This document shows positions 15,552 through 18,552 of a DNA stretch of 64,000 bases, piece after piece (position 1 is the first letter of the stretch; each line of letters begins with the position of its first letter). A model generated the notes under the pieces. That model had not been told where the DNA came from. It did not search any database and saw only the letters and a list, made by a program, of their open reading frames with translations. The DNA comes from Dietzia sp. B32 (GTDB lineage: Bacteria > Actinomycetota > Actinomycetes > Mycobacteriales > Mycobacteriaceae): NCBI RefSeq assembly GCF_024732245.1, contig NZ_CP093845.1, forward strand, positions 2,986,272 to 3,050,271. Reading direction: 5' to 3'. The position numbers and the translations under genes were made by a program.

Positions 15552-15974
15552 ATGACGAGTGACAGGGACCTGATCATCGAGCGTCTGGCCGACGTGGCCG
15601 CAGCGTTGGACTCACGTGACTGGGCCGGGCTGGGCGAGCTGTTCACCGAGTCCGCGACCGGGTACGGCGCGACCGGTCGGCAGGCGATCGTCGAGAGGGT
15701 CAGGGAGCACCTCGGGGGCTGCGGACCATCCCAGCACCTGTTGGGCAACCATCGGGTGCAGCTCGCCTTCCATGGAGACGAGGACCGGGCGCGGAGCCTC
15801 ACGTATGCGCGGGTCCTCCACCTCGGCGCCGGGGACCGGTCCGATCTGTCCTACGAGTGCTTCGGCGAGTACTCGGACCTGTGGACCCGGACGCCGGACG
15901 GCTGGCGGATCGACTCGAGGAGGTTCCACATCAGCTTCGACCGAGGCGATTTCCGGACACTCCAACCGGGCTGA
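15552..15974 (+). CDS. SnoaL/NTF2-like domain protein
   Basis: 140 residues, a single cone-shaped NTF2-like domain: helix DLIIERLADVAAALDSRDWAGLGELFTESA, then GRQAIVERVREHLGG, then beta strands ending WRIDSRRFHISFDRGDF. Members include polyketide cyclases, ketosteroid isomerases and many non-enzymatic binders, so no reaction is proposed. AAGGGGAG lies just before the ATG. The gene diverges from the carboxylesterase and precedes the broken RibD_C gene. Confidence 0.75.
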   Translation: MTSDRDLIIERLADVAAALDSRDWAGLGELFTESATGYGATGRQAIVERVREHLGGCGPSQHLLGNHRVQLAFHGDEDRARSLTYARVLHLGAGDRSDLSYECFGEYSDLWTRTPDGWRIDSRRFHISFDRGDFRTLQPG

Positions 15975-16023
15975 CCTCCGGGCACCTCCCATGGGAGGCG
16001 TCCACGATCTAGGACGCAACACC

Positions 16024-16420
16024 ATGACCGCCACCTCCACGTTTGACGTCTTCGCCAGCCTCGACGGCTTCGGGTCGTACAACGACAACGGTGATTGGGG
16101 CGGCTACTGACGATTCCGGCGTGTTCGACCCCTGGGTCACCCAGATGACCACGCTGCCGACGACGGTGGTGTCAACGACCCTGGATGGTCCCCTCGACTG
16201 GCCGGACGCGGCCATCGTCAGCGGAGACGCCGTCGAGGTGGTCGCTCGCTTGAAGCAGCAATCCGACGTGTCGTTGCGCTCGCACGGCAGCTTGTCGATG
16301 AACCGGGCGCTGATGGCCGCCGGTCTGGTCGATCGGGTGCAGGTGACGGTGTTTCCCTGGCGCAGTGGGTGGGTACCCGGTTGGGATGAGCATTCGAACG
16401 TGATCGAACCCTTGTGCTAG
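16024..16420 (+). pseudogene. RibD_C/dihydrofolate-reductase-family gene, 5' part, deleted and interrupted
   Basis: The ATG at 16024 starts TATSTFDVFASLDGFGSYNDNGDWGGY, the classic N-terminus of the RibD C-terminal-domain family, then stops at 16110. The next frame resumes with DDSGVFDPWVTQM, VVSTTLDGPLDWPDAAIVSGD and SLRSHGSLSMNRALMAAGLVDRVQVTVFP. About 60 residues between the two blocks are missing, which also shifts the frame. Homology ends near 16357, replaced by unrelated sequence to the stop at 16420. The true C-terminal tail is found at 18331-18423. Inactive. Confidence 0.8.
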
Positions 16421-16439
16421 TCCGCCTGCGTGGGTATCG

Positions 16440-16455
16440 TCGAATGTAAGTTCGA
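16440..16455. promoter_or_regulatory. Actinobacterial SOS box (LexA site) upstream of the HNH gene
   Basis: TCGAATGTAAGTTCGA matches the mycobacterial LexA consensus TCGAAC-N4-GTTCGA at 11 of 12 fixed positions, and lies 21 nt before the ATG of the HNH gene. The flanking G and C extend the palindrome to GTCGAA/TTCGAC. Half sites (TTCGAACG, TCGAAC) occur 35-50 bp further upstream. It predicts DNA-damage induction. Confidence 0.7.
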
Positions 16456-16476
16456 CACCGACAGGGCGGGGGTGGA

Positions 16477-18033
16477 ATGGTGACGACGACGAGTTCGCTG
16501 TTCGCCGTACCCGAGCCCCTCGGCATGGTCGACATGGAGGCTGTCAGCGAGGCGGCCCGTGCCGCGACGCTGGCGCAGAACCGTGCCGGGGCCACGCGGC
16601 TCGAGGCGGCACACGTCCTGGTCGACCAGTTCGCCCGGTCCGCCCAGGCCCAGGCGGACGAGGGAGGCGCCGGCGCCGGGTCGCGTCGGCCCGCGTACGC
16701 CCGGCTGGATCCGGAGGCCCGGGCCCGCGATCACCTCGTGGCGGCGTGTCAGCTCACGTGCTGGCACGCCGCGCGGTTGGTGACGGCCGGGACGCAGATC
16801 CACCGCCGGCTGCCCCGTCTGCGATCCACGGTCGACCGCGGGCTGCTGCCCGAGCAGGTGGCGGTCGATATCGCGTGTCGCCTGGCGGAGGTGCCCGACG
16901 CGATCGTGTCGGCCGTGGAGGACGAGGTGGTCGCGCGCTTCACGGACGATCTCGACGGTGGCGACCGGCCGACCCGCAACGCGGTGGACTCGGCGATCGA
17001 TGACGCCGTGGAGCGACACGACCCGGCTGCCGCGCAGGACGCCGCCGCAGCGGCGGCCGCCACCCGCTCGGTCCGATTCCGCGGCGACCGGAACGGCATG
17101 GCCACGATGTGGGCCAAGCTCACCGCCGCCGATGCCGAACTCCTCCGTCGTCGCATCGAGACCGATGCGTCGGCCGCCTCGGCGGACGGACTGGACGGTT
17201 CCCTGGACCAGCTCCGCGCCGACGCCCTCGCCGCGCTCGCCGTCTATCCGCCTGCTGGTGGCCCGTCCGCGACCAGCCCCGGCCCCGGCTCCGGCTCCGG
17301 CCCCGGCTCCGGCTCCGACCCGGCCCCTGCGTCCGAGTACGACGGCATCGAACTCGGCGACGTCAGGCTCGGGGCGGACCTCCCCCGGCCCACGCTGGGC
17401 AACGCCGCGCGGGCCGGTCAGCCGATCCGCATCAGCGTGATCGCCTCCGCGGCCCGGGGCCTGCCCAACCGCGTCGAGTTCGTCCACGGCACGTACAGCA
17501 GCGTCGAATGGCTCTGCACGGAACTGCTCGAGGGCGACGACGCGAGCGTGCGGTTCGAGCTCATCGACCCCGCCCCCGGCGTGCTCGACTCCCCCGAGCA
17601 CGCCCTGCGCTACGTGATCACCCCGGCGATGGCCGAGCGAATCCGCATGCGCGACGGGACCTGCCGCCACCCGGGATGCTCGGTTCCCGCCGAGGCCTGC
17701 GACGTGGACCATGTGATCGCGTTCAACACGAAGGACCCCGAGCTCGGCGGGCCGACCACCGAGTGGAACCTCGTCTGCCTGTGCCGCAAACACCACCGGG
17801 AGAAGACGTTCGGGACCAATGCCTACCGGTCCGGGCCGTTGGGTGAACTCGTCATCATCACCGACACCGGACACGAACACCGCACCAGACCCAAGGGCCC
17901 CTTGGCCCGTGCCCGTGACGCCATCTGGGAACGCGAGTGGAACGCCTTCGCCGACCGCATCGTCGCCGACGACGGCACACTCATCAATCCGCCGGGTCAG
18001 GACAGGTACGGACCCCGCAGACGGCCGGCCTGA
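16477..18033 (+). CDS. DUF222-HNH endonuclease domain protein (13E12 repeat family)
   Basis: 518 residues. The N-terminal two thirds is the helical DUF222 region (ARDHLVAACQLTCWHAARLV, STVDRGLLPEQVAVDIACRLAEVPD). A Gly/Ser/Pro-rich linker (PGPGSGSGPGSGSDPAPA) is near 265-282. The C-terminal HNH motif contains CRHPGCSVPAEACDVDHV and ends WNLVCLCRKHHREKTF, with the paired Cys of a zinc-bound HNH fold. This architecture is the REP13E12 family of M. tuberculosis relatives, usually multicopy and linked to mobile DNA. The gene lies between two halves of a RibD_C gene and carries an SOS box. Its biochemical role in this family is not established. Confidence 0.85.
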   Translation: MVTTTSSLFAVPEPLGMVDMEAVSEAARAATLAQNRAGATRLEAAHVLVDQFARSAQAQADEGGAGAGSRRPAYARLDPEARARDHLVAACQLTCWHAARLVTAGTQIHRRLPRLRSTVDRGLLPEQVAVDIACRLAEVPDAIVSAVEDEVVARFTDDLDGGDRPTRNAVDSAIDDAVERHDPAAAQDAAAAAAATRSVRFRGDRNGMATMWAKLTAADAELLRRRIETDASAASADGLDGSLDQLRADALAALAVYPPAGGPSATSPGPGSGSGPGSGSDPAPASEYDGIELGDVRLGADLPRPTLGNAARAGQPIRISVIASAARGLPNRVEFVHGTYSSVEWLCTELLEGDDASVRFELIDPAPGVLDSPEHALRYVITPAMAERIRMRDGTCRHPGCSVPAEACDVDHVIAFNTKDPELGGPTTEWNLVCLCRKHHREKTFGTNAYRSGPLGELVIITDTGHEHRTRPKGPLARARDAIWEREWNAFADRIVADDGTLINPPGQDRYGPRRRPA

Positions 18034-18038
18034 CCAAC

Positions 18039-18335
18039 TCAGCAGTCGCCGACGCCCACCCATTCGGAGACGCCGTCGGTGAAGCGCTGCCGCTTCCAGA
18101 TGGGCACCCCGTGCTTGAGCCGCTCGATGAGCTCCGAACACGCCGCGAACGCCTCGGCCCGATGCGGAGCCACAGCGACCACCACCACCGCGACCTCGCC
18201 CACCGGCAGCACGCCCACGCGGTGGACGGCGGACACGCGGACCGTGCGCCCGGAATCGGCCGCCGAGGTGTGCTCGGCCGCGACCTCGTCGCAGAGCCGG
18301 GCGAGAGTGTCCCGGGCCGTGGGGTGAGCGGAGTA
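18039..18335 (-). pseudogene. moaE: 3' half of molybdopterin synthase large subunit moaE
   Basis: Reading on the minus strand from YSAHPTARDTLARLCDEV, the frame continues VRVSAVHRVGVLPVGEVAVVVVAVAPHRAEAFAACSELIERLKHGVPIWKRQRFTDGVSEWVG, the C-terminal two thirds of MoaE including the invariant HRVG and PIWK(K/R) motifs. The N-terminal third, about 45-60 residues, is missing: upstream of Y the frame runs into the antisense of the RibD_C tail at 18333-18335. Its stop lies 5 bp from the HNH stop. It is therefore a truncated passenger. Confidence 0.8.
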
Positions 18336-18423
18336 TGACCTCGAACTGCTCGAGAGCCGCACCCTCGACGGCCGGATCCAGGAGCTGATCTACCGGCCCA
18401 CCCTGCACGCCCCACCCGGCTGA
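18331..18423 (+). pseudogene. RibD_C gene, detached C-terminal tail
   Basis: The frame reads EYDLELLESRTLDGRIQELIYRPTLHAPPG and then stops. LELLESRTLDGR.QEL.Y.P.LH is the conserved last strand and helix of the same RibD_C family whose 5' part lies at 16024-16357. Together they show that one gene was split by about 2 kb of inserted or rearranged DNA. Confidence 0.75.
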
Positions 18424-18479
18424 CCACCCTGAAATGCAGACCAGGCCAGGGCTCGGAAGCCACTGACCTGGTTGCTGAG

Positions 18480-18552
18480 CTCCCCCAATTGGACTCGAAC
18501 CAATAACCCTTCGATTAACAGTCGAATGCTCTGCCAATTGAGCTATGGGGGA
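18480..18552 (-). tRNA. tRNA-Asn (GTT)
   Basis: The cloverleaf has acceptor TCCCCCA/TGGGGGA with discriminator G, D arm GCTC/GAGC, anticodon arm TTCGA-CTGTTAA-TCGAA giving anticodon GTT, and T arm TTGG-TTCGAGT-CCAA. CCA is not encoded. It lies between the RibD_C remnant and dnaG, a typical flank for chromosomal rearrangements. Confidence 0.95.

What the first reader, a model, noticed from the sequence alone, without database searches (positions are those of the whole stretch)
16024..18423. RibD_C gene split by a DUF222-HNH element and a moaE fragment
The 5' part (16024-16357) and C-terminal tail (18331-18423) of one RibD_C gene flank about 2 kb holding an HNH (13E12-family) gene and the antisense 3' half of moaE. 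The 5' part also has an internal deletion with a frameshift. The moaE/RibD_C breakpoint can be placed within 3 bp (18333-18335). This records at least two rearrangements and shows how 13E12-type elements can carry or capture neighbouring DNA.
Basis: partly seen in the sequence, partly recalled or inferred. Interest (0 to 1): 0.72.

Follow-up and report, generated by a model that had tools for sequence, protein, structure and literature searches.

The report
Broken RibD_C gene holding transplanted DNA
In a Dietzia chromosome a reductase-like gene is broken by a 2-kb piece cut out of another Dietzia locus (an intact nuclease gene with scraps of the genes on both sides), which looks like DNA captured while a chromosome break was repaired: clear, but largely an ordinary rearrangement.

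Summary
16024-16357 and 18337-18423 are two parts of one RibD_C gene. It has lost about 116 bp internally (frameshift), and 54 bp where 1,978 bp of other DNA now sits. The reading changes in one respect: the inserted piece (16358-18335) is not an element that picked up moaE. It is a cut-out of one locus: the last ten codons of a nucleosidase-like (PNP_UDP_1) gene, an SOS-box promoter, an intact 518-aa DUF222-like HNH gene, and the last 99 codons of moaE. Nine of 20 Dietzia loci examined have this order with both neighbours whole, and the HNH tree puts the window copy beside such copies. The junctions show 0-3 bp of microhomology and Ku is present, so I infer break repair with DNA capture. A sister species shares the right junction to the base, which speaks against an assembly error. 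RibD_C itself is an insertion between a SnoaL-like gene and tRNA-Asn. In this genome the donor slot holds a 24-kb catabolic block. SOS-driven self-copying of the nuclease gene is not excluded: a relative holds a second, cleaner copy of the moaE-side gene.

The parts
15552..15974 (+). SnoaL-like gene; left neighbour of the whole insertion
   Evidence: PF13577 SnoaL_4, 80 bits; beside tRNA-Asn without RibD_C in G002, G013, G015
16024..16357 (+). RibD_C gene, 5' part: start to the stop at 16108-16110, about 116 bp lost there, then out of frame up to codon 'P' of the TVFP motif
16358..18335 (.). inserted chunk, 1,978 bp, a cut-out of a nucleosidase-HNH-moaE locus
   Evidence: matches L038, L039 and L041 end to end at 77-83%; order in relatives; left edge shares 2-3 bases with the target
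16358..16389 (+). last ten codons and stop of a nucleosidase-like gene
   Evidence: 29 of the last 31 bases identical to G000's own gene; that gene is PF01048 PNP_UDP_1
16404..16419 (+). upstream promoter box TCGAACCCTTGTGCTA
   Evidence: lies 36 bp before the second box, as in 16 of 22 copies
16440..16455 (+). LexA/SOS-type box TCGAATGTAAGTTCGA
   Evidence: the mycobacterial consensus TCGAAC-N4-GTTCGA is recalled, not from a call
16477..18033 (+). intact DUF222-like HNH gene, 518 aa
   Evidence: PF02720 18.6 bits and PF01844 17.8 bits, both under their cut-offs; PHROG HNH endonuclease families, best E 6.4e-7; D411, H412, N431, H439 and H440 invariant in 22 of 22 rows
18039..18335 (-). last 99 codons (stop included) of moaE, antisense to HNH
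18337..18423 (+). RibD_C gene, C-terminal tail with stop
18479..18552 (-). tRNA-Asn, right neighbour of the whole insertion

Best explanation
A RibD_C gene came to lie between a SnoaL-like gene and tRNA-Asn in the ancestor of this Dietzia and its sister G019. Later a double-strand break inside it was repaired by end joining that lost 54 bp and sealed in a 1,978-bp piece of a nucleosidase / HNH / moaE locus of the same or a very near lineage. RibD_C is dead; a second lesion shifts its frame. The HNH gene arrived whole with its SOS-type promoter and is probably still functional. The donor slot of this genome now has no HNH gene and holds a 24-kb catabolic block. Shown: the pieces, their order, the junctions, the donor arrangement in relatives, the right junction shared with G019, the slot in this genome. 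Inferred: end joining as the route, the order of the two RibD_C lesions, that this genome's own slot once held HNH, and that the nuclease played no part.
For: Chunk matches relatives end to end with scraps of both neighbours. Left edge closest to this genome's own nucleosidase (29/31, of 8 genomes compared); moaE remnant closest to this genome's own moaE (89.6%, best of 18 loci matched). Window HNH in a supported set (99/98) with 5 moaE-site and 2 site-3 copies. 54-bp target loss in 20 of 20 homologues, 2-3 and 0-1 bp of microhomology. Ku present. Right junction shared by G019. Vacant SnoaL/tRNA-Asn site in G002, G013, G015.
Against: The left junction is seen in G000 alone: G019's contig ends inside HNH. 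LigD was not searched. No genome was found with intact RibD_C at this place, so the target sequence is inferred from homologues elsewhere. moaE-site copies as a whole are not one clade in the tree (8 changes), so site and descent do not match simply. Why an intact, promoter-bearing nuclease gene should be the piece captured is left to chance.
Confidence: 0.68

Rival explanations
1. The SOS-induced HNH nuclease drives its own spread: it cuts new sites, and repair copies its own locus into the break, cleanly or with flanking debris.
For: SOS-type box upstream of the ORF, with a second box 36 bp before it in 16 of 22 copies. A second copy of the moaE-side gene in G015 at site 3, 1655 of 1676 bases alike, homology ending just outside the gene; that site is vacant in G003. 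Copies in one genome group across sites: G015 100/99, G004 98/95, G009 only 81/84. In print, M. [quoted passage not shown]
Against: The window insertion and the site-3 insertion share no end. The G015 pair looks converted: of 21 mismatches 8 lie in one 25-bp patch and 6 in the last 60 bases, 2 in the 1.2 kb between. REP13E12 regions are known conversion hot spots (PMC13061034, passages). No cutting activity or target is known here.
Confidence: 0.17
2. Homologous exchange or natural transformation with a donor Dietzia brought an already rearranged segment, so the capture happened in another species.
For: G019's HNH end and RibD_C tail are identical to the window while its dnaG part is not, as a recent exchange would give. 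The moaE remnant of G019 is a mosaic.
Against: The nucleosidase tail and the moaE remnant are closest to this genome's own genes. It only moves the capture event elsewhere and does not explain it.
Confidence: 0.12
3. Assembly error joining repeats.
For: HNH genes are multi-copy (11 matches in 10 genes in this genome), and contigs of draft relatives end in them.
Against: The same right junction in a second assembly with its own substitutions nearby; G000 is a single contig.
Confidence: 0.03

Closest known systems
REP13E12 / 13E12 repeat family of mycobacteria (DUF222-HNH proteins)
   Same: HNH gene of the DUF222 type in many copies, SOS-type box upstream, sequence exchange between copies (literature).
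   Different: Window protein is under both Pfam cut-offs. Here the copy sits as a cut-out with debris of both neighbours inside a pseudogene; prophage attachment, reported for REP13E12, was not examined.
Capture of stray DNA at breaks by bacterial end joining (Ku-dependent)
   Same: Target loss, little microhomology, an insert cut at points inside genes (pattern recalled, not from a call); Ku present.
   Different: No direct evidence of the repair route; LigD not searched.

Membership tests
DUF222-HNH / 13E12 family | DUF222 domain over Pfam's curated cut-off | tested here: inconclusive
   Window protein 18.6 bits, or 22.2 in the genome search, against 24.4. Its relatives in the same genome at 59-77% identity score 26-38 bits, over the cut-off.
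DUF222-HNH / 13E12 family | HNH nuclease domain with its residues | tested here: inconclusive
   PF01844 17.8 bits against 21.4; PHROG HNH families to E 6.4e-7; McrA HNH part E 5e-4; D411, H412, N431, H439, H440 invariant in 22 of 22 rows.
DUF222-HNH / 13E12 family | SOS (LexA) box before the gene | tested here: met
   16440-16455, position conserved among copies. By count alone it is not beyond chance: 17 of 100 shuffles had as many matches. LexA binding not testable here.
Mobile element with defined ends | The same ends in independent insertions | tested here: not met
   Window chunk ends inside two host genes; G015 site-3 copy ends elsewhere.
End-joining capture | Target deletion and little microhomology | tested here: met
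   54 bp lost in 20 of 20 comparisons; 2-3 bp left, 0-1 bp right.
End-joining capture | Ku and LigD in the genome | tested here: inconclusive
   Ku found, E 5.9e-52; LigD not searched.

The most novel reading that the evidence does not exclude
DUF222-HNH genes are SOS-induced, single-gene selfish elements that copy themselves into chromosome breaks, as a bare promoter-plus-ORF unit (G015 site 3) or with flanking debris (this window). The moaE-side locus is an active source in Dietzia: it gave at least two new copies, and conversion keeps copies in one genome alike.
Probability: 0.17. Interest if true: 0.65.

Novelty: new member of a known kind. Interest (0 to 1): 0.32.

Why it matters
The role of 13E12/DUF222-HNH genes is unsettled (one paper seen here calls REP13E12 regions lacking in defined function). 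The Dietzia sites give occupied/vacant pairs (moaE slot, site 3, this RibD_C site) on which the question 'do these nucleases move themselves?' can be tested. The finding itself is a well-resolved example of a captured DNA piece that leaves an intact nuclease gene inside a pseudogene.

Tried and rejected
An element with ends shared by all copies: rejected. Flanks of the copies sort into six sites plus the window, and what they have in common is a promoter and an ORF.

Phage or plasmid origin of the nuclease: no tblastn match in 50,697 phage records (E 1e-10) or 72,556 plasmid records (E 1e-15). PADLOC and NCBIfam: no family up to E 0.1. Solved structures: one match, 5zmm (McrA), residues 367-452 only, E 5e-4.

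Exact ends of the site-3 insertion: of 18 fetched loci (L211-L228) only G003 aligns over long stretches on both flanks, with 111 bp between them that were not resolved, so the ends stay open.

Arrival of RibD_C with a target-site duplication: 8 exact bases (GGCTGACC) occur at 15969-15976 and 18418-18425, at the two ends of the insertion; too short to be more than a hint.

The G012 translation printed is out of frame; one search has it in frame.

Full report
What is there. The window lies in a single-contig 3.73-Mb genome, G000:C1:2986272-3050271. Of 19 loci found with its HNH protein in named genomes, 14 bear Dietzia titles, so I take the host to be a Dietzia. At 16024-18423 a RibD_C gene is present in two parts. 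Its 84-aa piece 16106-16357 has relatives in 56 of 298 genomes of the order (this genome included) but in only 2 of 23 of the genus. Against 20 intact homologues the window lacks about 116 bp after 16107, which shifts the frame, and 18 codons between 16357 and 18337.

The insert. Window 16358-18335 matches loci L038, L039 and L041 of relatives end to end at 77-83%. In these the HNH gene stands convergent to an INTACT moaE, and on its other side is a nucleosidase-like gene (PNP_UDP_1 in this genome) whose last ten codons also lie in the window. Of 20 loci examined (around moaE, or around two further HNH copies), 9 have nucleosidase-HNH-moaE, 2 (G010, G013) have nucleosidase-moaE without HNH, and 9 show one or two of the three in the fetched stretch, contig ends among them. 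So the window holds a cut-out of that locus with scraps of both neighbours. In a 32-row tree of HNH proteins the window copy lies in a supported set (99/98) with 5 moaE-site and 2 site-3 copies; the moaE-site copies as a whole are not one clade (8 changes of label), and some rows are short or on long branches.

The donor slot today. In G000 the nucleosidase is at 2397853-2398491 and moaE at 2422716-2423144. Relatives align up to the nucleosidase end and again from moaE on. Of eight proteins of the 24 kb between, seven match Pfam families: an AbrB-family membrane protein, an HpaB-type monooxygenase, an amidase, two amidohydrolases, an aldehyde dehydrogenase and an ABC transporter; one gave no match. 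The nucleosidase tail in the window is closest to this genome's own gene (29 of 31; best of 8 genomes), and the moaE remnant to this genome's own moaE (89.6%; best of 18 loci matched). The donor was thus the own lineage or a near one; that the own slot once held HNH is inferred.

Age and reality. The sister G019 (DnaG 99% identical) has the same moaE/RibD_C junction, with tRNA-Asn and dnaG beside it and differences elsewhere (983 of 1042 aligned columns identical). Its moaE remnant differs from the window's in the middle, where it resembles this genome's intact gene. The event precedes the split, or the segment was exchanged. G019's contig ends in the HNH gene, so the left junction is seen once.

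The site before RibD_C. Of 17 loci searched, SnoaL-like genes were found in 5. In G002 homology runs to window 15975 and resumes at 18411 with 14 bases of overlap; in G013 51 bases, in G015 78 bases lie between the two matches. G004 has some hundreds of bases of other DNA there. RibD_C and all that lies in it are thus an insertion in this space.

How it works. The left junction can be drawn with 2-3 shared bases, the right with 0-1 and one base of unsure origin; 54 bp of target are gone; Ku is present, LigD was not searched. End joining with capture of a stray piece would leave this; the route is inferred. The HNH gene is open, its catalytic residues are invariant in 22 of 22 rows, and dN/dS against five copies is 0.19-0.24, a measure that mostly reflects other branches. 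Two boxes stand exactly 36 bp apart before the gene in 16 of 22 copies; in the other 6 one of the two was not matched by my pattern. The second is of the LexA type. With one mismatch allowed it occurs at one place in the window, on both strands, and 17 of 100 shuffles gave as many matches, so the conserved position, not the count, is the argument.

Does the gene move itself? For: G015 has a second copy at another site, 1655 of 1676 bases alike, homology ending just outside the gene; that site is vacant in G003; copies in one genome group across sites (G015 100/99, G004 98/95, G009 only 81/84). Against: of the 21 mismatches of the G015 pair 8 lie in one 25-bp patch and 6 in the last 60 bases, as conversion between older copies would give, and the window and site-3 inserts share no end. 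In print, seen as passages: LexA-controlled 13E12 HNH genes of M. tuberculosis (PMC4181829), their characteristics of mobile elements (PMC5005354), REP13E12 regions as conversion hot spots (PMC13061034), and 13E12 genes raised under stress in M. intracellulare (PMC11022373). A search for papers holding both Dietzia and 13E12 found none. I file the finding as a well-resolved rearrangement of a known kind, with a modest chance that it records self-spread.

Noticed in passing
L178 from 2495 to L179 11715 (G000:C1:2398494-2422715): A 24-kb block with amidase, amidohydrolases, HpaB-type monooxygenase, aldehyde dehydrogenase and ABC transporter genes sits in the nucleosidase/moaE slot where relatives carry the HNH gene.
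   Followed up: partly
L100 7326-9001 and L112 7235-8910 (G015): Two HNH copies 98.7% identical at different sites; mismatches sit in one patch and at the right end, as after gene conversion.
   Followed up: partly
L109 3019-3291 (G019): The moaE remnant is a mosaic: its middle resembles intact moaE, its ends the window remnant.
   Followed up: partly
L147, between SnoaL-like gene and tRNA-Asn (G004): Other DNA in the same space; one frame reads like the end of a LuxR-type regulator (by eye). The space seems to vary between species.
   Followed up: no
L048 (G009:C122): The HNH copy beside moaE has one in-frame TGA.
   Followed up: no
window 16393-16419: The upstream box motif TCGAAC occurs twice in short succession (TTCGAACGTGATCGAAC), unlike the other copies printed.
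   Followed up: no
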